This document shows positions 34,762 to 56,626 of a stretch of DNA of 64,000 nt, in pieces. Source of the DNA: an uncultured Verrucomicrobiales bacterium (lineage in GTDB: Bacteria; Verrucomicrobiota; Verrucomicrobiia; Verrucomicrobiales; Akkermansiaceae); the NCBI GenBank assembly GCA_937928735.1, contig CALFVF010000029.1, forward strand, positions 34,352-98,351, written 5' to 3'. Positions within the stretch are counted from its first letter, which is position 1. Each line of letters opens with the position of its first letter. A program made the translations under genes and the position numbers. The notes under the pieces were generated by a model. That model made no database searches, was not told the origin of the DNA, and saw nothing but the letters and a program-made list of their open reading frames with translations.

Positions 34762-35301
34762 ATGAATGAAAACGAGTACACGCGCTTTGTTCGTCTCTAC
34801 ACAAAAGTAGAAAGAGACTTGCGCCAATTTATCCGCTCATTACTCCCGAGCTGGCATGATGCTGATGAAGTGCTCCAATTAGCCGCACTTGTACTCTGGA
34901 AGAAATTTGATCAATTTGAGTCCAAGGGTGAGGACGAGGAGGTGGACTTCATACGCTGGGCGTGTGTAGTCTCTCGATTTGAGGCCCTAGCGTATCGTAA
35001 GAAATTGGCTCGAGATAAGCTAGTCTTTCGGGAGGAAGTCTTTGAACTCATGGCGCTAGAAGCAATCGAGGAGGTGGATGATAGACAATCAGAGCGCAAG
35101 GCTCTCGAGCACTGCCTCAAGCAGCTTAGTTCCGCGCAGAATGAGTTTATCCGCCTAGCCTACACTCCAGGAGTAAAAGTGAAAGAACTAGCCCTAAAGG
35201 CAGGAGTGAAACCTGAGGCATTTTACATGAGATTAAATCGACTCAGGAAGAAACTTCAGAGCTGTGTTCAGCGATCAGTGCAATCCCAACAAGGTGTATG
35301 A
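34762..35301 (+). CDS. ECF sigma factor, Rhodopirellula/Verrucomicrobium type
   Basis: A 179-residue sigma factor. Region 2: YTKVERDLRQFIRSLLPSWHDADEVLQ and FDQFES...FIRWACVVSRFEALAYRKK. Region 4: LKQLSSAQNEFIRLAYTPGVKVKELA followed by KPEAFYMRLNRLRKKLQ. The pattern (sigma factor followed by a FecR/LamG membrane protein) is that of an ECF group particular to this superphylum. Its stop overlaps the FecR gene start by 4 bp (ATGA). It probably drives the whole 34762-41400 operon or a linked regulon. Confidence 0.9.
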   Translation: MNENEYTRFVRLYTKVERDLRQFIRSLLPSWHDADEVLQLAALVLWKKFDQFESKGEDEEVDFIRWACVVSRFEALAYRKKLARDKLVFREEVFELMALEAIEEVDDRQSERKALEHCLKQLSSAQNEFIRLAYTPGVKVKELALKAGVKPEAFYMRLNRLRKKLQSCVQRSVQSQQGV

Positions 35302-37013
35302 TGAATAGGACTAGTCAGAGTGAGCAGCAAGAGAGCTTGATTGATGACTATATCAATGGAGTGATATCTGAGGCTGAGTTTGAGGTCTTCGAGCAGCAGC
35401 TAAAAGAAGACCCCGAGCTGAGAGCGAGGCTGCGCCAGGCGATTGCCATTGATGAGTATCTGCGGGAGGATTTTGCGTCCCAATGTGAAGTCACAGCCAC
35501 TTGGGGGGATGCGTTAAAAGGGAATGATCTAGCAGAAGGTGAGCATCAAACTAAGCTGGTAGCAGAGAAAAAAGTAGCTTGGTGGCCAATGGCCGTTGCC
35601 GCGACGCTAGCAATAGGATGTCTTGTCTATGGATTGAGTTTTTTTTCTACCACTGAGTATGCTAAGGAGTATGCGAAGAAAGGCACCGAGAGTGATGTGG
35701 CTCAACAGCAGCTGGATGGTGAGCCTCCTGAAGAAGATTCATCGAAAGGATTTGCTGAGGGATTTGCCGAAGGTTTCGCTGTTCTTCATGAACTCAATGG
35801 GAACCACGAGAAATATCAAGTGGGCAAGACCCTAGGGGCGGGAGCCTTCAAGATTGAAGAAGGGGCTGCTGAGCTGCATTTCTTTTGTGGCGCGCGCGTG
35901 GTGCTAGAAGCTCCCGCTGAGATACGAATCATCTCAGCCTGGGAGGCGAAGTGCATAGAAGGCAGGCTGCGTGCAGAGGTGCCGCCCGCTGCGCGTGGAT
36001 TTAAGCTAGTGACAGAGTCCTCAGAGATTATTGATTTAGGCACAGAGTTTGCCTTAGAAATCTCTGATGGTGATGCCACAGTGGAGGTGATTGATGGTGA
36101 GGTGGCGGTGCTGCACCGCTCGGAGCTAGAGACACGCTTAAGGACAGGTGAGGCGAGATACTTGCCCAAGATCGGAGATTCGGAAGCGAGAGCCTACAGC
36201 TCGATTTCACCCACAAAGAATTTCCTGGAAGTGGAATCAAAGCGCAAAGAATCCTTTGGCGTGTGGCTGCGTGAAAGCGAGAGTCTAGCGCGTGATGAGC
36301 GCCTGCTAGCCTACTATAATTTCCAAGACATAGATCATGTCGTGCCCAACATAGCGAATCAGGGAGATGAGTTCTCGGATGCATCCATTGTGATGGCAAC
36401 AAAGGAGGATGGCCGCTGGCCGGGCTATAAGACAGCGCTTGATTTCCGCCGCGCAGGGGCGCGCGCCAGAGTGAATATTCCCGGGGAATTTGAGGCGTTA
36501 ACTCTGATGGCTTGGGTGAGAATTGACTCCCTAGATCGCTCCTACAGTGCCTTATTTATGGGGGATGGCTACGAGAATGGAGAACCTCACTGGCAGATTA
36601 AGGAAGACGGGAGACTCATGTTTTCAGTGATGATTGATGACAGTCGCCAGCCACCGGGCAATCCACTCTCAGGGGGGATTCACCGAGTGTACTTCTCACC
36701 CGTCATCTGGGATTTCTCAAAGAGTGGTGAATGGCTGCATCTCGCCTCAACGTATGACCCTGAGCAGAGAGAGGTGCGTCATTTTGTCAACGGAGAATGC
36801 GTGCATGAAGACACGATTATAGATAAGTACTACACGGATACACTGCGTATAGGAGCTGGTGAAATTGGCAACTGGGGTCAGCCATTTCGGCGTGTACCCA
36901 CCTTTGCGATTCGCAATCTCAACGGCCGTATTGATGAATTAGGTATCTACGGCGCGGCACTGGGAAAAGACGAAGTCAAGGAGCACTATCTGCGCACAAA
37001 AGTGCAGTTCTAG
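35298..37013 (+). CDS. FecR-like membrane protein with LamG domain (putative anti-sigma)
   Basis: 571 residues. The N-terminus (1-90) is cytoplasmic, with an anti-sigma-like start (LIDDYINGVISEAEFEVFEQQLKEDP); one membrane segment lies at about 95-113 (WWPMAVAATLAIGCLVYGLSF). Beyond it is a FecR domain (FCGARVVLEAPAEIRI, then GFKLVTESSEIIDLGTEFAL, VEVIDGEVAVL) and a C-terminal LamG/concanavalin-like domain (LMAWVRIDSLDRSYSALFMGDG, then EWLHLASTYD, GRIDELGIYGAAL). It is translationally coupled to the ECF sigma gene, so it most likely restrains that factor until an extracytoplasmic glycan-like ligand binds LamG. The signal is inferred. Confidence 0.88.
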   Translation: MMNRTSQSEQQESLIDDYINGVISEAEFEVFEQQLKEDPELRARLRQAIAIDEYLREDFASQCEVTATWGDALKGNDLAEGEHQTKLVAEKKVAWWPMAVAATLAIGCLVYGLSFFSTTEYAKEYAKKGTESDVAQQQLDGEPPEEDSSKGFAEGFAEGFAVLHELNGNHEKYQVGKTLGAGAFKIEEGAAELHFFCGARVVLEAPAEIRIISAWEAKCIEGRLRAEVPPAARGFKLVTESSEIIDLGTEFALEISDGDATVEVIDGEVAVLHRSELETRLRTGEARYLPKIGDSEARAYSSISPTKNFLEVESKRKESFGVWLRESESLARDERLLAYYNFQDIDHVVPNIANQGDEFSDASIVMATKEDGRWPGYKTALDFRRAGARARVNIPGEFEALTLMAWVRIDSLDRSYSALFMGDGYENGEPHWQIKEDGRLMFSVMIDDSRQPPGNPLSGGIHRVYFSPVIWDFSKSGEWLHLASTYDPEQREVRHFVNGECVHEDTIIDKYYTDTLRIGAGEIGNWGQPFRRVPTFAIRNLNGRIDELGIYGAALGKDEVKEHYLRTKVQF

Positions 37014-37165: not shown

Positions 37166-39910
37166 ATGAAGTTTGGTTCTACATTTTCAATCATTCCGCT
37201 ACTCATTGGAGGCTTTTCCCAAAGCCTAGTAGCAGAAATCGACTACGAAACTCAAATTAAACCTATTTTTGAAGAGTACTGTATTGATTGCCATAGTGGC
37301 TCAGATCGAGAGGCGAATTTGCGCCTAGACTACAGACCTTCACTACTGCTGGGTGGTGATTCTGGTATCAAAGCAGCCGTGCCCGGGCATCCTGAAAAAA
37401 GCTACCTGATGGAGCTCATACAGCACAAGGAGCCCGATCTAGAAATGCCGCCTAAGGAAGATAAACTCAGTGATGAGAATATCGCACTCATCTCTCAGTG
37501 GATAAAAGAAGGAGTGAATATCCCCGGGCAGATGGATCTCAAAGTGGAGAAAACAACAGATCTATGGTCTTTCCAAGCAGTCGAGCGCCCAGAGCTACCA
37601 GCAGGGGCGGATCATAAAAGCGCGATAGATGCCTACTTGCTAGAAGCTCTTGATGAGAAAGGCTTGAGCTTTAATTCGCCAGCCTCCGCTGAGGTGCTTA
37701 TGCGCCGTGTTTCTGTCATCTTAACGGGTCTACCGCCGACACCAGAGCAGCTACAGAGCTTTTCGGCAGCGTATGCCGCCCAACCAGAGCAAGCCTACAC
37801 AGAGCTCGTGGATCGTCTATTGGCATCAAAACATTTTGGAGAGCGCTGGGCTCAGCATTGGCTAGACGTGATTCGCTGGGCAGAAACCAATGGATCAGAG
37901 TCGAATCTCTACAGAAAAAACGCATGGATCTATCGTGACTATGTGGTGAATGCCTTCAATGAAGACTTGTCCTATGCTCAGTTTCTGAAAGATCAGGTTG
38001 CAGGCGACCAAACAGGGGCGGAAGCAGCCACAGGATTCCTAGTCTCAGGCCCCCATGTGCCAGCAGCCTCTGTTGGCCGTGAGGCCATTGCAATTCGCCA
38101 GGCCCGCGCGGATAGAGTGGATGAGATCGTGCAGACAGTAGGAGCTTCTGTACTGGGAATGACCGTGAGTTGTGCGCGCTGTCACAACCATAAATTTGAT
38201 CCCATTTCCATTAAAGATTATTACTCACTGGCCGCCTTTTTCCAAGGTGTCGAATTCGGTGGAAGATACCCAAAGTATGAAGAAGGCCACCCCATTGAGG
38301 AGTTAGAAACAGCACTTCGTACAGAGCTAGATAGCGTGCGTCACCAATTAGGATTTGGCCAAATCCCTCTCTGGGAAGACTGGAAAGGCTACAATGAAGT
38401 ACACTTACCGGTCGTGGAGACAAAAGCTCTTCGATTCACATCAGTGAAGCCTAACTTTGTGGTGGACGAGCTAGAAGTGTTTGGTCCTGATGAAGCGGAG
38501 AGAAATCTCGCTCACAAGAGAGAATCCGTAGAAATCAAGGTAGAAGAGAAAGACTTCGCACTACTCAAAAATCCTGAATTTGTAAATAATGGGGAATTTG
38601 GAACAATGAGCTTCCGAGGGAAAGCCAAGAAAGGTGCTTCACCCAGCTTTGAAATGCACTTTAAAGAACCAGTCGCCATCAATCGCCTAAAGGTTAGCAC
38701 GAATCGCGAATTTTTCTTTGAGACAGACTATCTAGACCGCGGTTCTAGTCTGCCTAACTTCGATGTCGAAGCCCTAGGAGAAGATGGTGTCTGGGTGTCT
38801 ATTGCCAATTATAAAAAGGCAAAGGCAAGGGTGAATGGCGAGTCTCATCTAAAGACACTAGCTCGGCGCCGAGATCAGCTTATTGAGAGAATCATGAAGG
38901 AAGGCTCACAGGTAAGTTTTATTGGCCGATTCTCAAAGCCCGAACCAGCCTTCATCTTCCACAGAGGAAGTCCTGAGAACAAGCGCGAGGAAGTCGCACC
39001 AGCTGGATTTGAACTCCTAGAAGGCGATCTGGAGTTAACTTCTGAAACAAGTGACAAGGAGCGCCGCATGAAGTTTGCGGAGTGGGTCATAGACCCCAAA
39101 CACCCACTGACCGCCCGAGTGATGGTCAATCGTCTATGGTATCATATTTTTGGACAGGGCATTGTACCAACCACCGCTGACTTCGGAGTCGCTGGAGCAA
39201 AACCAACAAATCAAGCTCTACTGGACTACTTAGCCTCAGAATTTGTGTCACCTTCTCAGCCAGAGGCCAAAGCTTGGTCAGTTAAGGCGATGATTCGCAG
39301 CATGGTGCTCTCAAAAGCATTCCGCCAGTCCAGTGCTCCGCAGGCAGCTGGACTTGAGAAAGACGCGGCAGCAGCACTACTCTGGCGCTATCCTCCACGC
39401 CGTATGGAGGCTGAGGTGATTCGAGATTCCATTCTTAGTGCTTCCGGTAAGCTCGATCTCGCCCTTGGCGGAGAGAGCTATAGAATTCACAATGTGAAAA
39501 AGACCTACGCACAGTGGGAGGTGGATAAGAACTATGACGAAAAAACGTGGAGACGAATGCTCTATCAAGAGCGTATGCGCCGCGTGGATGATAAGATCTT
39601 CACAGCGTTTGACTTCCCAGACTGTGGGCAAGTGAGAGCGAAACGACCTGTTTCCACAACGCCACTACAGGCACTTAACTTAATGAATAGCCCCTTCGCC
39701 ATGAGTCAGTCCGCACTCATCGCGGAGCGAGCACTCGCTGAGAGTGGTGGAGATTACAAGAAGTCCATCCAGCGTATATTTGAAGTCATCCTAGGCCGTT
39801 TACCAGACACCGATGAGCTAGAGGCATGTCTCGAGCTTGATAGAGAGAAAGGTCTCTCTCTGGTTAGTCGCTCACTTATTAACTCAAACGAATTTGTATT
39901 TTTACCATGA
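37166..39910 (+). CDS. Planctomycete-type cytochrome c protein with DUF1549 and DUF1553
   Basis: 914 residues with a signal peptide (1-23). A PSCyt1 heme-binding domain has CIDCH at 39-43; then come DUF1549 (ERWAQHWLDVIRWAETNGSE; a second CARCH motif), an inserted beta-rich segment (about 405-560) resembling an F5/8-type C (discoidin) domain (VVDELEVFGPDE; INRLKVSTN), and DUF1553 (HPLTARVMVNRLWYHIFGQGIV; YPPRRMEAEVIRDSIL; FDFPDCGQVRAKRPVSTTPLQALNLMN). Such proteins always travel with DUF1501 proteins; the biochemical role is not settled. The stop overlaps the DUF1501 gene by 4 bp. Confidence 0.92.
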   Translation: MKFGSTFSIIPLLIGGFSQSLVAEIDYETQIKPIFEEYCIDCHSGSDREANLRLDYRPSLLLGGDSGIKAAVPGHPEKSYLMELIQHKEPDLEMPPKEDKLSDENIALISQWIKEGVNIPGQMDLKVEKTTDLWSFQAVERPELPAGADHKSAIDAYLLEALDEKGLSFNSPASAEVLMRRVSVILTGLPPTPEQLQSFSAAYAAQPEQAYTELVDRLLASKHFGERWAQHWLDVIRWAETNGSESNLYRKNAWIYRDYVVNAFNEDLSYAQFLKDQVAGDQTGAEAATGFLVSGPHVPAASVGREAIAIRQARADRVDEIVQTVGASVLGMTVSCARCHNHKFDPISIKDYYSLAAFFQGVEFGGRYPKYEEGHPIEELETALRTELDSVRHQLGFGQIPLWEDWKGYNEVHLPVVETKALRFTSVKPNFVVDELEVFGPDEAERNLAHKRESVEIKVEEKDFALLKNPEFVNNGEFGTMSFRGKAKKGASPSFEMHFKEPVAINRLKVSTNREFFFETDYLDRGSSLPNFDVEALGEDGVWVSIANYKKAKARVNGESHLKTLARRRDQLIERIMKEGSQVSFIGRFSKPEPAFIFHRGSPENKREEVAPAGFELLEGDLELTSETSDKERRMKFAEWVIDPKHPLTARVMVNRLWYHIFGQGIVPTTADFGVAGAKPTNQALLDYLASEFVSPSQPEAKAWSVKAMIRSMVLSKAFRQSSAPQAAGLEKDAAAALLWRYPPRRMEAEVIRDSILSASGKLDLALGGESYRIHNVKKTYAQWEVDKNYDEKTWRRMLYQERMRRVDDKIFTAFDFPDCGQVRAKRPVSTTPLQALNLMNSPFAMSQSALIAERALAESGGDYKKSIQRIFEVILGRLPDTDELEACLELDREKGLSLVSRSLINSNEFVFLP

Positions 39911-41400
39911 TCAATCAGGAAGAAAAAGTATCGCTCTTTGGGAGTCAACTCATGAGTCGCCGTGGCTTTCTGGGCCGTGCGGGTCTCACCATGGGTGGAT
40001 TATCACTCGCTCAGCTACTAGCGAAAGACGGTGACCCCAGTGCCTTCTCAGGAAAAGCGCCAATACGCCCAGACATTCTCTCAAAAGAACCTTATGCTCC
40101 GAGGGGAACACACTTCGAGACACCGGCAAAACAAGTGCTCATCGTGTACTGTCCAGGAGCCGTGAGCCACGTAGACACCTTTGACTACAAGCCAGATCTC
40201 TTTAAATACCATGGGCAAAAACCCCCGGGGCTGCCTGCGGTGACTTTTGAAGGGCCGACAGGGAATATTGCGCAGCCGTTCTGGGAATTTAAACCACGCG
40301 GTGAATCCGGTAAGATGATCTCAGAACTCGTGCCGCATCTCGCAGAGCATGCAGATGATTTCTGCTTCATGCACTCGCTGACCACCCAGACCAGTGCGCA
40401 TCCACAGGGTGAGAACTTCATGAACACAGGCTTTACAATGGAAGGTTTCCCTTCATTTGGAGCTTGGGTGACCTATGCACTTGGTACAGATAATCAGGAG
40501 CTACCCTCCTTTGTGGCAATTAATGACCCACGAGGCACGGCACGCTCAGGAAAGAACAATTTTGGCAACGGCTTCTTGCCAGCAGCATTCCAAGGAACCG
40601 ACTTCAATGCAAAAAACCCTCCAGCGAACCTAGTGCGCCCAGGCCACCTCACCGCAGGAGATGATAAGTCCACAGTCGAGTTGCTAGCGCGTTTTAATGC
40701 GAAGCATTTACAGCAGTTCCCGGATGACGCTGACCTAGCGGCAAGAATCGCCAGCTACGAGCTAGCAGGGAAGATGCAAACATCTGTGCCAGATATCATG
40801 AGCATTGATGGAGAACCTGAGTCAATTCATAAAGAATACGGGACAGACCAAGGCTCCGACTTAAAGCGCGAGTACGCAAAGAACTGTATCCTAGCGCGCC
40901 GACTCCTTGAGAAAGGTGTGCGTGTGGTGCAGCTCTTTAATGGCTCAGACCCTTCGGGTGGAAATGGAATTACCAATTGGGATTCCCATTCGAATATTAA
41001 GAACACCCACGCCATGCAAGCAGAGATCATGGATCAGCCCACAGCGGCTCTGATTCATGACCTAAAGAGGCGTGGTATGCTAGAGCACACCCTTGTTGTC
41101 TGGTGTACAGAGTTCGGGCGTATGCCTTTCCTTCAGGCAAATGGCAGTGGCCGCGATCATAACCCTGAGGCCTTTACTTGCTTCTTAGCAGGTGCTGGTG
41201 TGAAGAAAGGTTTCTCCTATGGAGAGAGTGATAACTTTGGCTTTAAAGGGGCCAAGGACATAGCGACTGTCTACGACTTTAATGCCACGCTGCTACACTT
41301 AATGGGCTTAGACCACGAGCGCCTCTCCTACTATCACAATGGCATTGAGCGCAGGCTCACGAATGTCCACGGCCATGTGATTAAAGACGTCCTGGCATAG
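39907..41400 (+). CDS. DUF1501 domain-containing secreted protein
   Basis: 497 residues in the DUF1501 family, distantly related to sulfatase/alkaline-phosphatase folds. A twin-arginine-like signal is near the N-terminus (MSRRGFLGRAGLTMGGLSLAQLL, shown in part as SRRGFLGRAG), suggesting folded export. Landmarks include IVYCPGAVSHVDTFDYKP, HPQGENFMNTG, NWDSHSNIKNTHAMQ, VWCTEFGRMPF and GRDHNPEAFTCFLAGAGVK. It is coupled by an ATGA overlap to the DUF1553 cytochrome, its usual partner. Function of the pair is unknown; oxidative attack on a polymer or sugar is one idea. Confidence 0.93.
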   Translation: MINQEEKVSLFGSQLMSRRGFLGRAGLTMGGLSLAQLLAKDGDPSAFSGKAPIRPDILSKEPYAPRGTHFETPAKQVLIVYCPGAVSHVDTFDYKPDLFKYHGQKPPGLPAVTFEGPTGNIAQPFWEFKPRGESGKMISELVPHLAEHADDFCFMHSLTTQTSAHPQGENFMNTGFTMEGFPSFGAWVTYALGTDNQELPSFVAINDPRGTARSGKNNFGNGFLPAAFQGTDFNAKNPPANLVRPGHLTAGDDKSTVELLARFNAKHLQQFPDDADLAARIASYELAGKMQTSVPDIMSIDGEPESIHKEYGTDQGSDLKREYAKNCILARRLLEKGVRVVQLFNGSDPSGGNGITNWDSHSNIKNTHAMQAEIMDQPTAALIHDLKRRGMLEHTLVVWCTEFGRMPFLQANGSGRDHNPEAFTCFLAGAGVKKGFSYGESDNFGFKGAKDIATVYDFNATLLHLMGLDHERLSYYHNGIERRLTNVHGHVIKDVLA

Positions 41401-41408
41401 AGTTCTGG

Positions 41409-41501
41409 CCAAACCATATCCAACCTCCCAAAAAGAGGGCAGAAATGCTCTCTCCTAGTCCCTTACTACGCATGCCTGTAGTAAGGGACTAATTGGTTTG
41501 G
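41409..41501. repeat. Nested inverted repeat with perfect 14-bp inner stem
   Basis: Inner arms TAGTCCCTTACTAC (41456-41469) and GTAGTAAGGGACTA (41478-41491) pair exactly around an 8-base loop; outer arms CCAAACCA (41409-41416) and TGGTTTGG (41494-41501) also pair. It follows the DUF1501 stop by 9 bp, but no T-run follows, so it may act as an mRNA 3' stabiliser rather than a simple terminator. The sequence just after, GTTTGGTGGA (41496-41505), also ends the 31369-31479 hairpin. Confidence 0.75.
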
Positions 41502-41649: not shown

Positions 41650-42183
41650 ATGAATCATAGTGCGCGAATGTTATCAGACTCTTGGAAGGTCTGGTTGAGC
41701 GAACACGGTAAAAAGCTGCTGCTTTATGCCCGTTCGCGCTGTGAGTCTATGGAAGACGCAGAAGATATCATGCAGGAGTCCATAGCGCGCCTTTGGCGTT
41801 ATCAGGAAGAGCGCGCTCATGTGCCACCGGATGTGCCTTTGGCCTTTGCGACGATGCGCCATATTATACTCGATTACGGGAGAAAAGTCGGCCGTCGGCA
41901 TAAGAATAATCAAAAAATCATCAATTTCACAGCCCAAGACGATGTTTGGACAGACCCTGCCCTAGAAGATGATGAAGATGCAGCTGCCTTGAGAAAAGAG
42001 CTCTCTGGACTGAGTGAAAAGTTAAGAGAAGTTGTCACTTTGAAGATATGGGGTGAGCTGACATTTGCCGAAATCGGCAAGGCGCTCAATATTTCACAAA
42101 ACACGGCAGCATCACGCTACCGATACGGCCTTGAGGCTCTCAGTCAGGCCATGAAAGCAAAAAAATTACAGAGAAATGGATAA
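41650..42183 (+). CDS. ECF RNA polymerase sigma factor
   Basis: About 177 residues from ATG at 41650; a TTG-initiated extension to 41602 is less likely. Region 2: WKVWLSEHGKKLLLYARSRC, then MEDAEDIMQESIARLWRY and a PLAFATMRHIILDYGRK helix. Region 4: GLSEKLREVVTLKIWGELTFAEIGKAL with ISQNTAASRYRYGLEAL. It overlaps the next gene by 8 bp, and that gene encodes a single-pass membrane protein of anti-sigma design. Upstream, ATACCAA and TTGGTAT (around 41533 and 41567) form another inverted repeat. Confidence 0.92.
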   Translation: MNHSARMLSDSWKVWLSEHGKKLLLYARSRCESMEDAEDIMQESIARLWRYQEERAHVPPDVPLAFATMRHIILDYGRKVGRRHKNNQKIINFTAQDDVWTDPALEDDEDAAALRKELSGLSEKLREVVTLKIWGELTFAEIGKALNISQNTAASRYRYGLEALSQAMKAKKLQRNG

Positions 42184-42796
42184 TTCCTTACTCGATATCG
42201 AAAAAAGCCTCAAGAAGCTAAAGATGCCAGAAGCATCTGACACAGCTCTATGGCGGCTAGAAGATCTAGTGGATGAGCTAGCCAGCGATGGAGTGGTTGC
42301 TGAGCAGTCTCCTCAAACTGGAGAGCATCGTTCAGGAGAATGGTTCAACAAGCTCCAGCGACAGCCTAGACTACTCTTCTACTCTGTAGCAGCCTGCTTT
42401 CTTGCCTGCATGGGAGCAGGGTTTTATGGATTTGATCAAGCCGCACAGCGTACAAATGCAGGGACAGAGGTGGCTAAGGCCAGTGAATTACGCATGCAAG
42501 CTGACGATAAACTGATAAGCAGTGTGTCTGCACCTGAGGATGTGGTGCAGATAAATAGAGAGGACTCTGCCAGTGTGAATGCCTCTACGATGTCGATGGA
42601 GTTTGTCAGATCAGATACGGTAGTGGAGATGCTCGCCGTGGAAGAAGGGTTTTCAGAAGATAGAAATGCTTTTTTTCGCGTAGAGCGCTATTCTGTACTC
42701 GATTCTGATATTTATAAAGACCCCACTTCTGGTCATACGGTTACACTCCAGCAGACAAGTAATGAGGAGCGAAGAGCTCCGGTAACATTCTTTTAG
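42176..42796 (+). CDS. Single-pass membrane protein, putative anti-sigma factor
   Basis: 206 residues. An N-terminal cytoplasmic part (1-62) begins with a helix DIEKSLKKLKMPEASDTALWRLEDLVDE (short part: LEKSL-like amphipathic start), then one membrane segment at about 64-83 (LLFYSVAACFLACMGAGFYG) and a periplasmic tail with no recognised domain. The 8-bp overlap with the ECF sigma gene, the topology and small size fit an anti-sigma factor, although no zinc-binding HxxxCxxC motif is seen. Upstream of a PDZ protein by 2 bp. Function inferred from context. Confidence 0.72.
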   Translation: MDNSLLDIEKSLKKLKMPEASDTALWRLEDLVDELASDGVVAEQSPQTGEHRSGEWFNKLQRQPRLLFYSVAACFLACMGAGFYGFDQAAQRTNAGTEVAKASELRMQADDKLISSVSAPEDVVQINREDSASVNASTMSMEFVRSDTVVEMLAVEEGFSEDRNAFFRVERYSVLDSDIYKDPTSGHTVTLQQTSNEERRAPVTFF

Positions 42797-42798
42797 TT

Positions 42799-43515
42799 AT
42801 GAAAGTATTCACATCTGTTCTCTTTTTTTACCTGTTAGTGACAGGGGCTACCTATGCCGATAAGGTGAATTCACCTGTATTTATGGGAGTAGGAGTCGCG
42901 AAGCCCTCCGAAATCATTCGCGCACAATTGCCAGAGCTGCCAAAAGGGGCGGGCTTTGTCCTCGAATCCGTGAAACTCAGCGGGCCCGCAGAGAGAGCAG
43001 GGCTTGAGGTACACGATGTCATCTATATGTTAGAGGATCAACTCCTTATTAATGAAGGGCAATTAATGACACTGCTAGGCCTCAGGCATGATGGAGAAAC
43101 AGTGACAATTCGCTATTTCCGTGGTGGAGAGGAACAAGAGACGGATCTCACACTCGAATCAAGAGAAGAAGTGCTAAGACCATCTCTACCTGATCAAATC
43201 GGCCTTCCTCCTATACCGGGCTTGCCACTGCATACGATTGATCGCCAAGAGAGAACAGCGACGATATCTGACGATAAAGGTATCTACACAATGATGAAGC
43301 AGGGTGAAGAAGTCTGGCTCAGAGTCGAGAGTCTCGGTGGTGAACTCGTCTTTGATGGTGCTGTGATGAACTCAGCCCAGCTCGAAACCGTTCCTGAGCA
43401 CTGCAAAGATAAGCTCCCGATTCTTCGGAGAGCTCTGGATGAGTTTACAAGAGATAAAGTAAAGCGTAGAACACGGGTGCGCTACGTGCCACCTAAACCA
43501 AATCAGAAAAGATAG
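42799..43515 (+). CDS. Secreted PDZ domain protein
   Basis: 238 residues with a signal peptide (1-20, ending TYA). A PDZ domain covers about 28-115: FMGVGVAKPSEIIRAQL, then LSGPAERAGLEVHDVIYML, LLINEGQLMTLLGL and GETVTIRYFRGGEEQ. No protease domain is attached. The C-terminus is basic and proline-rich (VRYVPPKPNQKR). It lies 2 bp after the putative anti-sigma gene, and a membrane protease gene follows, so it may be the peptide-sensing part of a proteolytic signalling chain. This role is inferred. Confidence 0.82.
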   Translation: MKVFTSVLFFYLLVTGATYADKVNSPVFMGVGVAKPSEIIRAQLPELPKGAGFVLESVKLSGPAERAGLEVHDVIYMLEDQLLINEGQLMTLLGLRHDGETVTIRYFRGGEEQETDLTLESREEVLRPSLPDQIGLPPIPGLPLHTIDRQERTATISDDKGIYTMMKQGEEVWLRVESLGGELVFDGAVMNSAQLETVPEHCKDKLPILRRALDEFTRDKVKRRTRVRYVPPKPNQKR

Positions 43516-43539
43516 AGAACGTCGTGTTTTTGGTTCTAC

Positions 43540-44268
43540 ATGGAGTCTAGTTCTCTGATGCCTACAGCTAGTGCTTTTTGTCGAAATGTAGTGGTGCAGA
43601 TTATCGCTGCATATGGGCTGTTTTTTCTCGTTGCAGCAGCTAGTTCTTTGCTTACGGATACAGTTTTGATCCGTAAGCTGCTGATGTCTGTTCCTGGAGC
43701 TGTACTGTGCCTCTACGCAGTGAAGTCACAGATGTGGCAAAAGGTGGAAAAGAAGGGGCGGGGGTTTCGTATTTGTGCGATTTTGATCTTACTGTGCTAC
43801 TTTGCTGTGAATTTCATTGGTAAGCCTACTTCCTCTGTTCCGGAGTTCATGGAGTTACTAGCAGTTGTGTCAGTTTGTGTGTTGATTGGTATCAGTGAAG
43901 AACTGATGTTTCGTGGGTACTTATTTCAGCTTTGTAGGCGCTGGAGTCCAGCTGCAGCTGTTCTCATCACATCTATACTATTTGGTATCTTACATTATCC
44001 ACAAGGGGTAGTTGGTGTGATCATTACATGTATTTGTGGATTGGTGTTTGCAATAGCACGGTCGAGAGGAGTCCCTCTATGGAGCTTGATTGCTCTTCAC
44101 GCCCTTATAGATTTACCGGCTAGGTTACCACATAGTGTGACGAGTTACTATAGCGCTCTGGGGCTGCTGGTGTCAGTGAGTGCTTTAGTTTTTGGAGTGT
44201 GTTATTTTATCCGTCCTTCTCATTGGGTGAAAGAAAAGAGCCAGCCTTTTGGTAAAAAGCTGGCTTGA
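43540..44268 (+). CDS. CPBP family intramembrane glutamic endopeptidase
   Basis: A 242-residue polytopic membrane protein (about seven hydrophobic segments) of the CAAX protease/Abi (CPBP, Rce1-like) family. All three motifs are present: EExxxR as ISEELMFRGYLF (Glu120, Glu121, Arg125), FGILHYPQG with His152, and IALHALIDLP with His187. It lies 24 bp after the PDZ gene and is probably the last gene of the sigma/anti-sigma/PDZ cluster. Rce1-like enzymes cleave within membranes; cleaving the linked single-pass protein is a testable idea. ATG at 43558 is a second start option. Confidence 0.87.
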   Translation: MESSSLMPTASAFCRNVVVQIIAAYGLFFLVAAASSLLTDTVLIRKLLMSVPGAVLCLYAVKSQMWQKVEKKGRGFRICAILILLCYFAVNFIGKPTSSVPEFMELLAVVSVCVLIGISEELMFRGYLFQLCRRWSPAAAVLITSILFGILHYPQGVVGVIITCICGLVFAIARSRGVPLWSLIALHALIDLPARLPHSVTSYYSALGLLVSVSALVFGVCYFIRPSHWVKEKSQPFGKKLA

Positions 44269-53614: not shown

Positions 53615-55066
53615 TTACTCTCTACTGAGTGCTGGTAGGCCGCGCTGGCGTAGCTGTGTATCGACTGTGTCTGAGAGTTTCGCGTCGAGATAGATTTTAT
53701 GCGGAGCACTGTCTAATTCGATACTATGGATGGTGTCGAGTTCGGCTTTCTGGAAGGCTTTGATGAGTGAGGGGATATCACGGATGGGCTGTCCATTGAC
53801 CTTCTCGATAATAGCGCTGTTGAGGAATTCGTAGCCAACTGTCGCTGGTGTAGGGATGACGGAACTTAGGAAGACGATACGGTCTGTGTCTTGTTCGTAG
53901 TCCTCTGGGTGAGCGAAGGCGTCTAGGAGATTCAGCGGGACTTTACTCTCCCAGTCTTCCCCATAGGCCTGGAGATAGCTTTTGGTGAGCTCTTGGAAAA
54001 CTAGACCTCCTTTAATCAGGTAGCGAGGTGCAGAGCCTATGGTATCTGTAGGCACAAGTCCATCAATAGGGCGCTGGAGTTTGATCTCGTAGGAGAGGGT
54101 TTCTTCACCACGTCTCAGAGAGACGTCGATAGCTTTATTGACTGCCCCCTCTCCACGAACGAGGTGGCTCCAGTAGACTTGGCGATAGAGCTCAGAGGTG
54201 TAATAGCCACGGCGAGAGAGTGCGTTTCCATTGATGGATAAAATCACATCACCGAGCTGGAGGCCTGCTTTGGCAGCAGCACCATCAGGGGCGAGTTTTG
54301 TGATGTAGACACCTCCTTCATCATTGTTGAGCTTCAGCCATGCGCGGAGATGAGGATCTGAGGTATTAGCGGCTCCTACACCGAGAGAGGGAAAGCCGAT
54401 ATAATTCCCATCTTCTGTATCTCTGAGGAAGTTATCAATGATTTCAGGGGAGATGACATCAAGAATCTGATCATCAGAGTCATAGGATGTGAGTAGACCT
54501 AGTAGTTTCCCTTCATTGAGGACAGGGATGCTATAGCTACTAGAGGCACTTTGCATCGAGGCCTTGATCTCATAGGTGAGGAAATAATGACCATCGAGGA
54601 AGCTAGAAATAATATCTGTGCTCTGTAATGTGCCTTTGGTGAGAAGGGGGAGGCCTGTGTCTTCGACCTGCCAGATATCGACCTCAGAGCCTAGCGGGAC
54701 TGGTTGGCTCAGACTCAGTGGTACGAGACCTTTTAAAATACTAGCTTGGTCTACGGGCTCAAGCAGGGCTAGATTAGTCTCATTATCCGTGTAGAGAACG
54801 CGTGCAATAGCTCGCTGTTCTCTATCGAGTGTTTCAAATTCAATATAAGTGGCATTGGCGACAACTTCCGCTGTAGTAAGAACCCGCTGTCCCTCCAGTA
54901 CCGCACCGAGAGCTCGGCGTTTGTAGGGGGCTGTCTTTTCCCAAGGCTGGGTGACATTGTAGTTCTGTTTGGTCGAATTGATACGAATAAAAGACTGTGG
55001 GGCATCAGCGAGAACGGAGAGTGAGCCAATGAAGGAGCTCAGTAAGAATGAGAGAAGTAGTTTCAA
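53615..55066 (-). CDS. HtrA-like PDZ pseudoprotease
   Basis: 483 residues; TTG start; signal peptide 1-20. The trypsin-like domain is present (RRALGAVLEGQRVLTTAEVV, NETNLALLEP) but all three catalytic residues are replaced: the His position (TNAHVV) reads TTAEVV (Glu67), the Asp in DLALLE is Asn98, and the GNSGGPV region is SSYSIPV (Tyr178 in place of Ser). A PDZ domain follows (about 245-325: GGVYITKLAPDGAAAKAGLQLGDVI, in part) and a second PDZ-like region lies near 395-460. It follows the active HtrA gene by 24 bp. Likely a regulatory partner or chaperone rather than a protease. Confidence 0.85.
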   Translation of the reverse strand: MKLLLSFLLSSFIGSLSVLADAPQSFIRINSTKQNYNVTQPWEKTAPYKRRALGAVLEGQRVLTTAEVVANATYIEFETLDREQRAIARVLYTDNETNLALLEPVDQASILKGLVPLSLSQPVPLGSEVDIWQVEDTGLPLLTKGTLQSTDIISSFLDGHYFLTYEIKASMQSASSSYSIPVLNEGKLLGLLTSYDSDDQILDVISPEIIDNFLRDTEDGNYIGFPSLGVGAANTSDPHLRAWLKLNNDEGGVYITKLAPDGAAAKAGLQLGDVILSINGNALSRRGYYTSELYRQVYWSHLVRGEGAVNKAIDVSLRRGEETLSYEIKLQRPIDGLVPTDTIGSAPRYLIKGGLVFQELTKSYLQAYGEDWESKVPLNLLDAFAHPEDYEQDTDRIVFLSSVIPTPATVGYEFLNSAIIEKVNGQPIRDIPSLIKAFQKAELDTIHSIELDSAPHKIYLDAKLSDTVDTQLRQRGLPALSRE

Positions 55067-55090
55067 AACGGAAAATGGAAAAAAGTTAGA

Positions 55091-56626
55091 TTATTTCTCT
55101 AGGTAAAATGGAGAAGGAACACTGTAGTTTTCAGCGATACGTTTATTCGCGCTCTCCAACTCTGTGGTCTGTAGAATCAGTGGGCGCTGAATGCCATCAA
55201 AGCGAATTTCGAAGAACTCAGGCAATGTCTCAGGGTGGAGCATCTCGTGGAGGTGGTTGAGATCAATCACATCAACTCCATTGACCGATGCCACAGCATT
55301 CCCTGCGAAGGCATTTAACTGGGCATTGATAGGATCGTCGAGCACACGGGTGAGAATAACGATGTCTTTTCTGGTCTCGTGGAGGTTTTCCTCCAGATAG
55401 TTATTAAAAATCCTACGAACTCTCGGGTTATTGAGGCGGTGGCTGGCGTAGAGATTACGGTCAAGTGGCTGAAAGACGAAGCCCCCCTGTATACTATAGC
55501 GAGGCTTCTGGTCATATTTGACAGCATAGACCCTGGCTGGTGGGAAAGCTCGTAGCGTGATCGTAGCCTCTCTGGGGGATCCTTGGCGCAGAAAGTTCAG
55601 CTCTACAGTGTCTCCTGCGAACTTGCGCTCCACAATCTCGTGCATTTTCACACGCTCGCCAGCGATGACGACATTCCCTTCACTGTCAATCTGGTGACCG
55701 TCAATGGAGGTGAGGATGTCACCAGATTCGAGAACCCCATCACAGGCATCTCCAGCAGTGACAGCACCGACCAGCACTCCGGGAGCGTCTGGGGCGAGGT
55801 TGTGTATAGCGCGCATCGCTGGATTATGCAGTGGGAATTCTGCCACACCGAGATCCACGTAGTGATCATAGCGCCCATCTTCAATGTCCTGAAGAAACCG
55901 CCTTACCACGGGTGTGGGTATCATGTAGCCAGTATTGTCTGCTGAGCGCAGACCCTGGAATGCCACGCCGATGACCTTGCCATCCTGGAGGACGGGGCCA
56001 CCAGAATTACCGGGGTTAATGGCAGCATCGATCTGAATCACGAGGTGGGAGTCAATACGACTATGAGAGTATGGACGGAAGTCGATGCGTGAGACCACCC
56101 CGCGAGTCACAGAGATGCGGTCACCACCCACTGGGTAGCCAATCACGCGCACTTCACTCTCTAGCTGCGGCACCTCACCTATCGGTAAGTAGCTGAGGTC
56201 TTCAAATGGAGTGTAATCCTCCACCTCTAGGAGTGCGAGGTCACAGTCATGGGCCACATGGACAACACGCGCTGTGTGCTTACGGGAAGAGCCGCGCATA
56301 GTGATGATGACACGTTTTTGGTTAGAGACAACGTGGGCATTTGTCAGAAAACGGTTCTTACCAATCAGAAATCCTGTACCACTGCCGCCACTAAAGCGCC
56401 CTGAGTTCCACGGTGTCTTGTAGTCAGGGTTTTGAGAGGCGACTTCAATACGGAAGATAGATTTATAATGTGTCGCATTCTTCTCCTCATTGAGAGAAGC
56501 TAGAGGTGATTGGCTTTGCTGGCTATTGGCTGAGACAAGAGCCTGAGCAGAGTGGTCGGAGGCAGTATCCTGCCCAGAGCACATGAGAGTACCAGCGAGA
56601 AGGAGGCCAGTGAGTCGGAAAATCAT
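55091..56626 (-). CDS. HtrA/DegP-type serine endopeptidase
   Basis: 511 residues with a signal peptide (1-17). The trypsin-like domain carries the full triad: His98 in LTNAHVV, Asp129 in DCDLALLEVE and Ser208 in NPGNSGGPV. A PDZ domain follows (about 285-370: GVLVGAVTAGDACDGVLESG, IDGHQIDSEG). The N-terminal linker is Ser/Gln-rich. HtrA proteases degrade misfolded periplasmic proteins. It heads an operon of HtrA, dead HtrA and UbiA. It has one clear PDZ domain and a degenerate C-terminal PDZ-like part, with an uncommon C-terminal extension. Confidence 0.93.
   Translation of the reverse strand: MIFRLTGLLLAGTLMCSGQDTASDHSAQALVSANSQQSQSPLASLNEEKNATHYKSIFRIEVASQNPDYKTPWNSGRFSGGSGTGFLIGKNRFLTNAHVVSNQKRVIITMRGSSRKHTARVVHVAHDCDLALLEVEDYTPFEDLSYLPIGEVPQLESEVRVIGYPVGGDRISVTRGVVSRIDFRPYSHSRIDSHLVIQIDAAINPGNSGGPVLQDGKVIGVAFQGLRSADNTGYMIPTPVVRRFLQDIEDGRYDHYVDLGVAEFPLHNPAMRAIHNLAPDAPGVLVGAVTAGDACDGVLESGDILTSIDGHQIDSEGNVVIAGERVKMHEIVERKFAGDTVELNFLRQGSPREATITLRAFPPARVYAVKYDQKPRYSIQGGFVFQPLDRNLYASHRLNNPRVRRIFNNYLEENLHETRKDIVILTRVLDDPINAQLNAFAGNAVASVNGVDVIDLNHLHEMLHPETLPEFFEIRFDGIQRPLILQTTELESANKRIAENYSVPSPFYLEK

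What the first reader, a model, noticed from the sequence alone, without database searches (positions are those of the whole stretch)
41650..44268. Candidate sigma/anti-sigma/PDZ/CPBP intramembrane proteolysis cascade
Four tightly packed genes encode an ECF sigma, a single-pass membrane protein overlapping it by 8 bp, a secreted PDZ protein with no protease domain, and an intact Rce1-like intramembrane protease. By analogy with RpoE/RseA/DegS/RseP, the PDZ protein could sense unfolded peptides and the CPBP protease could cut the anti-sigma. I know of no described pathway using a CPBP protease this way, so it could be a new system.
Basis: inference. Interest (0 to 1): 0.7.

Follow-up and report, generated by a model that had tools for sequence, protein, structure and literature searches.

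The report
Anti-sigma tail docked by PDZ partner
A conserved set of three bacterial genes pairs a sigma factor (a gene-expression switch) and its likely membrane anti-sigma with a predicted secreted PDZ protein that probably grips the anti-sigma's last residues, a link that relatives seem to have replaced about five times by fusing the two proteins, while the protease gene next door is in none of the relatives' sets examined.

Summary
The four genes are real and correctly described, but the four-part proteolysis cascade is not supported: no CPBP gene was found in 148 fetched stretches around related sigma genes, and a search of 5.8 billion proteins found only the CPBP's own near-copy and two distant hits. 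What is conserved is ECF sigma / anti-sigma / PDZ protein, separate and in this order in 96 of 106 close orthologous loci, window included. New here: the anti-sigma ends in a PDZ-ligand-like tail, [S/T]-x-F-COOH. Its last residue is hydrophobic in 96 of 96 (F in 87), against 0 of 87 for the sigma and 1 of 87 for the PDZ protein. Six further loci (about five events) fuse anti-sigma and PDZ protein; three of them lost all or most of the PDZ domain, all keep the C-terminal domain. One clade without the PDZ gene also lost the F. Best reading: the PDZ tethers an RseB-like co-regulator to the anti-sigma's free C-terminus; binding and its effect on proteolysis are untested. Against a general rule: in 31 paralogous or more distant sets only 7 tails end hydrophobic.

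The parts
41650..42183 (+). ECF sigma factor (cassette A), 177 aa
   Evidence: Sigma70_r2 and r4 above Pfam cut-off; TIGR02937 above cut-off; 107 hits above 255 bits in 106 of the 195 family genomes searched, own included (my count of its list)
42176..42796 (+). anti-sigma factor (inferred), 206 aa: two cytoplasmic helices (3-14, 22-37), one hydrophobic segment about 65-86, modelled three-stranded periplasmic sheet 142-202, free C-terminal tail
   Evidence: 8-bp overlap with sigma; AF2 model, mean pLDDT 70, sheet 93-98; orthologues at the same place
42776..42793 (+). last six codons of the anti-sigma, APVTFF: PDZ-ligand-like [S/T]-x-F-COOH
   Evidence: terminal residue F/L/I/Y in 96 of 96 cassette A loci, [S/T]-x-hydrophobic in 83 of 96
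42799..43515 (+). secreted (predicted) PDZ protein: signal-peptide-like start about 1-20, HtrA-type PDZ about 25-127, C-terminal domain about 144-222
43540..44268 (+). CPBP (Rce1-like) intramembrane protease, lineage-specific neighbour, not part of the conserved cassette
   Evidence: PF02517 1.9e-20; no linked copy found in relatives; only its near-copy and two distant hits in the protein search
41456..41491 (+). 15-pair stem-loop between the DUF1501 gene and the sigma gene; may separate two transcription units (inferred)
   Evidence: consensus match only

Best explanation
The locus carries a conserved three-gene cassette (ECF sigma, predicted single-pass anti-sigma, predicted secreted PDZ protein) in which the free C-terminus of the anti-sigma, ending [S/T]-x-F, most likely docks in the groove of the PDZ protein, which would make that protein a detachable RseB-like periplasmic co-regulator, while the CPBP protease is probably a lineage-specific neighbour outside the system. 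Shown by the sequences: the gene order, the tail and its near-constant end point, the recurrent fusions, and the shared lack of PDZ gene and F tail in one clade. Inferred: that the first two proteins bind each other as sigma and anti-sigma, the membrane topology, the docking itself, and its outcome. Proposed working: the anti-sigma's cytoplasmic helices hold the sigma at the membrane; its periplasmic sheet presents the tail; the PDZ clamps the tail and so brings the PDZ protein's C-terminal domain, kept in all six fused loci, onto the anti-sigma, where it controls access of a site-1 protease encoded elsewhere (HtrA-type and M50-type proteases exist in the genome). When the PDZ protein is changed or titrated away, the anti-sigma is cut and the sigma freed.
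For: Order: 96 of 106 loci read have the three separate genes. Tail: last residue hydrophobic in 96 of 96 (87 F, 7 L, 1 I, 1 Y), S or T at -2 in 83; controls: sigma 0 of 87, PDZ protein 1 of 87, greA-like 16 of 71, enolase 7 of 58 hydrophobic; 2 of 25 membrane-type neighbours of ECF sigmas without PDZ, one fitting the motif. In the alignment of 63 anti-sigmas the last residue is the fifth most conserved column although rows beyond the three nearest are 13-28% identical to the window's. PDZ: AlgW/DegS type; loop W in 83 and G in 91 of 91 rows; in AlgW W281, L282 and V284 make the hydrophobic contact with the ligand's C-terminus (PMC8545111 passages). Q88, by my inference the helix position that reads ligand residue -2, is Gln in 91 of 91 cassette A rows and 11 of 31 others. 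Fusions: six loci, 5 changes on the sigma tree, at least 4 forced by well-supported branches; no signal-peptide-like stretch remains between the fused parts (by eye), which fits a periplasmic anti-sigma C-terminus. Co-loss: two sister loci without PDZ gene end EAQ and SAK (clade 100/98). The modelled last strand ends at 202, before the tail.
Against: Binding was not tested; only monomer models could be made. In 31 parsed loci with sigma below 255 bits (paralogue B and more distant sets) the order is the same and 25 keep Pro at -4, yet only 7 end in a hydrophobic residue and none fits [S/T]-x-hydrophobic; two further such loci, L203 and L204, have no detectable PDZ downstream but keep the Pro and end LSSD and VEAD. 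So docking is absent there or of another specificity. The co-loss is one clade of two incomplete genomes (86% and 77%). Three fused forms have lost all or most of the PDZ, so the PDZ is dispensable once the parts are joined: this fits a tether, not a PDZ that must sense unfolded proteins. The anti-sigma has no known family. The contrast at Q88 could be ancestry alone.
Confidence: 0.6

Rival explanations
1. The hydrophobic tail is read not by the cassette's PDZ protein but by the PDZ of a protease (HtrA or another) elsewhere, as an entry tag for degradation of the anti-sigma.
For: The genome has eight Trypsin_2 matches and two M50 matches; protease PDZ domains of DegS and AlgW bind C-terminal residues (PMC8103513 and PMC8545111, passages).
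Against: The F tail is gone in the clade where the cassette's PDZ gene is gone; about five fusions join exactly these two proteins; only 2 of 25 membrane-type ECF neighbours without PDZ have a hydrophobic end.
Confidence: 0.16
2. One reading: the PDZ protein senses unfolded peptides and the CPBP protease cuts the anti-sigma in this organism.
For: Adjacent genes 24 bp apart with intact catalytic motifs; PrsW, a structural relative of CAAX proteases, cuts RsiW (PMC4602095 passages).
Against: No linked CPBP found in 136 + 12 fetched stretches; relatives of the anti-sigma (66%) and of the PDZ protein (89%, 72%, 71%) exist without a matching CPBP in the protein search; four further CPBP genes lie elsewhere in the genome, as does an M50 protease.
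Confidence: 0.06
3. The tail is only the end of the periplasmic sheet; its conservation is structural and the PDZ protein has another partner.
For: In the paralogous and distant sets the Pro at -4 is kept (25 of 31) with mostly polar last residues, also in two loci without a detectable PDZ.
Against: The modelled last strand stops at 202; the end residue survives where the residues before it have diverged (..NISEF..TNQF..NQQIF); fusions and co-loss.
Confidence: 0.16

Closest known systems
RpoE-RseA-RseB (and AlgU-MucA-MucB)
   Same: Sigma, membrane anti-sigma and a periplasmic co-regulator without protease domain (RseB binds RseA's periplasmic part: PMC8103513 legend and PMC10202637 passages).
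   Different: The window's anti-sigma and third protein match no RseA or RseB family; the third protein is a PDZ protein and the anti-sigma has a PDZ-ligand-like tail.
DegS / AlgW site-1 proteases
   Different: No trypsin-like protease domain; here the proposed ligand is the anti-sigma itself instead of an outer membrane protein or MucE.
PrsW-RsiW-sigmaW
   Same: A protease structurally like type II CAAX enzymes cuts an anti-sigma (PMC4602095, passages).
   Different: The window's CPBP matches only PF02517 and is not linked to the cassette in relatives.
ECF sigma plus FecR/LamG pair in the same window (34762-37013)
   Same: ECF sigma followed by an overlapping gene for a regulator-like protein.
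   Different: Sig-70_gvs1 sigma and FecR/LamG protein; the next genes are PSCyt1/PSD1 and DUF1501, no PDZ.

Membership tests
ECF sigma factors | sigma-70 regions 2 and 4 | tested here: met
   both over cut-off; TIGR02937 63.8 against 42.9
RseA/RseB-type system | anti-sigma homologous to RseA | tested here: not met
   0 Pfam and 0 NCBIfam families for the 206-aa protein
RseA/RseB-type system | third protein homologous to RseB | tested here: not met
   only PDZ families in Pfam
RseA/RseB-type system | sigma, anti-sigma, periplasmic protein in that order | tested here: met
   96 of 106 loci; periplasmic location predicted
HtrA/DegS proteases | trypsin-like protease domain | tested here: not met
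   no protease domain in the PDZ protein
HtrA-type PDZ | fold and ligand-binding loop | tested here: met
   loop G30 in 91 of 91 rows
PDZ ligand of class I (class name recalled) | [S/T]-x-hydrophobic at the free C-terminus | tested here: met
   window VTFF; 83 of 96 loci
PDZ ligand of class I (class name recalled) | binding to the PDZ protein | not testable with these tools
   no complex prediction or assay available
CPBP / Rce1-like | PF02517 with EExxxR, FxxxH, HxxxD/N | tested here: met
PrsW anti-sigma protease | match to a PrsW family | tested here: not met
   only PF02517 in Pfam at E 0.1

The most novel reading that the evidence does not exclude
A split anti-sigma factor: its periplasmic regulatory half is a separate secreted protein clipped onto the membrane half by a PDZ-to-C-terminus bond, a bond that evolution has about five times replaced by a covalent one. 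Because outer membrane proteins also end in F (the one read here ends ..RANF), unfolded ones could compete for the groove and unclip the regulator, so stress would be read by displacement, without any protease in the cassette.
Probability: 0.3. Interest if true: 0.82.

Novelty: new variant of a known kind. Interest (0 to 1): 0.62.

Why it matters
Known envelope-stress systems use PDZ domains inside proteases. Here a protease-free PDZ protein seems to be the regulator, with the anti-sigma as its ligand. That gives a directly testable handle (one terminal residue) on a sigma system found in 106 of the 195 family genomes searched, and the repeated fusions are a natural experiment on what PDZ docking is for. 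The literature searches found no paper on such a pairing, in a library without most subscription journals.

Tried and rejected
CPBP as cassette member: sought in relatives and in 136 + 12 cassette stretches; rejected. These 148 include one stretch of the window's own genome (L194, the paralogous cassette) and one genome twice (L078, L098), and some end soon after the sigma gene; of 87 cassette A loci parsed, 85 have at least 3 kb after the sigma. The CPBP model was built from 18 sequences, about half of the control loci; it found 33 of 34 controls and missed one own CPBP (L005), so distant CPBPs could be missed.

Anti-sigma as bait in genomes: only the window's own copy and chance hits; the sigma profile worked instead.

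Fold of the anti-sigma: best Foldseek E 0.068 on a model of mean pLDDT 70.

Foreign origin of the CPBP by composition: GC 0.449 against 0.473-0.481 for the other three genes; too small to conclude.

rows for loci whose match lies on the minus strand (L276, L277, L280, L285) were read on the wrong strand and are not used. The greedy gene picker mislaid genes in some loci; searches replaced it. The group counts of the tree compare grouped rows only and are not used; one search is. Left out of the 106-locus count: L098 (same genome as L078), L099 and L112 (named contigs outside the list), and G209 (not fetched, contig ends about 290 bases beyond the sigma). Inside the 106, L271 and L287 are cut by contig ends. 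Left out of the 31: L091 and L092 (sigma under 100 bits), L101-L104 and L106 (no PDZ found, or contig end), L203 and L204 (no PDZ found).

Literature: searches (eight of ten); searches returned no paper. Seen as passages only: PMC10202637, PMC4602095, PMC8103513, PMC8545111; the other listed papers only as listings.

Full report
What was claimed and what is there. The finding describes four packed genes at 41650-44268. All four are present and intact: an ECF sigma factor, a 206-aa protein overlapping it by 8 bp with one hydrophobic segment, a PDZ protein with a signal-peptide-like start and no protease domain, and a CPBP (Rce1-like) protein with its catalytic motifs. The window is part of a 2.65-Mb genome in 40 contigs; the best named matches of its sigma are Verrucomicrobia, Akkermansiaceae among them.

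The CPBP gene is not part of the unit. Among the 58 genomes, the full-length PDZ hits of relatives and their CPBP matches lie at different places (compared by eye). I then fetched stretches around the sigma gene: none of the 136 loci nor of the 12 has a CPBP match; the model recognised 33 of 34 control loci. In the protein search the window's CPBP has one near-copy (99%) and two distant hits (30%, 32%), while the anti-sigma has relatives at 66% and 45% and the PDZ protein at 89%, 72% and 71%. A sister lineage, whose 66% anti-sigma and 89% PDZ protein both lie on a contig of 34,746 bases, thus shows no recognisable copy of this CPBP. The window's genome has four further CPBP genes elsewhere.

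The conserved unit is sigma, anti-sigma, PDZ. A profile of the sigma (A1) finds a match in 181 of 195 genomes of the family. By my count of its list, 107 hits above 255 bits lie in 106 genomes, the window's included: cassette A. Weaker hits near 160 bits mark a paralogous cassette B, also in the window's genome on contig C3 (L194). I read 106 of the 107 A hits: 96 have three separate genes in the order of the window, 6 have anti-sigma and PDZ protein fused, 2 lack the PDZ gene, 2 are cut by contig ends. Of 87 of them, 71 also carry a complete greA-like gene and 58 a complete enolase gene in the fetched stretch. In the window's genome greA-like and enolase are on another contig, next to a thioredoxin gene, so here the cassette sits in a different neighbourhood.

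The tail. In all 96 separate cassettes the anti-sigma's last residue is hydrophobic: F 87, L 7, I 1, Y 1; the third residue from the end is S or T in 83, and P stands at -4 in 75. Controls: last residue hydrophobic in 0 of 87 sigmas, 1 of 87 PDZ proteins, 16 of 71 greA-like, 7 of 58 enolases, and 7 of 46 window frames of 200 codons or more (the anti-sigma is one of these). Of 30 ECF loci without PDZ examined, 25 have a membrane-type neighbour; 2 of these end hydrophobic, none in F, one fits [S/T]-x-hydrophobic. In the alignment of 63 anti-sigmas (one row in three displayed) the displayed rows end at one column, though two more columns show that at least one other row runs on; the last residue ranks fifth in conservation, while rows beyond the three nearest are 13-28% identical to the window's. 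The window's tail is VTFF; two relatives end VTFF and VTYF. This is the form of a C-terminal PDZ ligand ('class I', a recalled label).

Natural experiments. Six cassette A loci have one open frame for anti-sigma plus PDZ protein: L176, L295 and L296 keep the PDZ; L184, L220 and L297 have lost it wholly or mostly; all six keep the PDZ protein's C-terminal domain, and by eye none keeps its signal peptide. L295 and L296 come from two genomes, which argues against an assembly error. On a sigma tree the fused state needs 5 changes, at least 4 forced by well-supported branches. Two sister loci (L254, L257; clade 100/98) lack the PDZ gene, and their anti-sigmas end EAQ and SAK; a search of these two genomes with a PDZ protein of the same genus found none in one and only weak hits in the other. 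One of those weak hits belongs to a further sigma/anti-sigma/PDZ set whose anti-sigma ends VNSF (L307). Together these suggest that anti-sigma and PDZ protein act as one unit, that PDZ and tail can be dispensed with once the parts are joined, and that the C-terminal domain is the part to be delivered.

Mechanism. I commit to a docking model: the PDZ clamps the anti-sigma's terminal residues and delivers a periplasmic regulatory domain, as RseB acts on RseA by other means. Cutting would be done by proteases elsewhere: the genome has eight Trypsin_2 matches (seven over cut-off, two of them in this window) and two M50 matches, one in a 495-aa frame that could be RseP-like, not checked further. 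Whether binding protects or primes the anti-sigma is open; protection is favoured by analogy with RseB only (PMC8103513 legend and PMC10202637 passages). Competition by outer membrane protein ends is possible, since the one such protein read here ends ..RANF, but the fused forms without PDZ speak against it as the only input.

Limits. No binding, no complex model, no expression data. In the 31 parsed loci with sigma below 255 bits (cassette B and more distant sets) the tails mostly end in polar residues (D 9, H 6, Y 4, Q 3, others; hydrophobic 7; [S/T]-x-hydrophobic 0), with the same order and Pro at -4 in 25; L203 and L204, without a detectable PDZ, also keep that Pro. The ligand rule thus holds for cassette A only. 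Counts are of related loci, not of independent events. Loci were found through the sigma or the PDZ, not blindly.

Novelty. Searches found no paper holding these terms together; that is weak evidence, as most subscription journals are missing. I rate it a new variant of a known kind.

Noticed in passing
34762-37013: A second ECF sigma (Sig-70_gvs1) overlapping a FecR/LamG protein gene, directly upstream of a PSCyt1/PSD1 plus DUF1501 pair (37166-41400).
   Followed up: partly
53615-56626 (minus strand): Two neighbouring genes with Trypsin_2 (HtrA-type) matches about 9-12 kb from the cassette; on contig C3 two such matches also lie roughly 9-12 kb from cassette B.
   Followed up: no
L194 (G000:C3:14500-27500): Paralogous sigma/anti-sigma/PDZ cassette B in the same genome; its anti-sigma ends ..IPIEEN, not hydrophobic.
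   Followed up: partly
L307 (G136, contig C115): A distant sigma/anti-sigma/PDZ set whose anti-sigma ends VNSF, in a genome whose cassette A lacks PDZ and F tail.
   Followed up: partly
L297 and L190 (G148): One genome holds two cassette A copies, one with separate genes and one fused with most of the PDZ gone.
   Followed up: partly
L091, L092 (same-genus genomes): Another variant set with a divergent sigma, anti-sigmas ending VTIF and AAIF, and in L092 two PDZ genes in a row.
   Followed up: no
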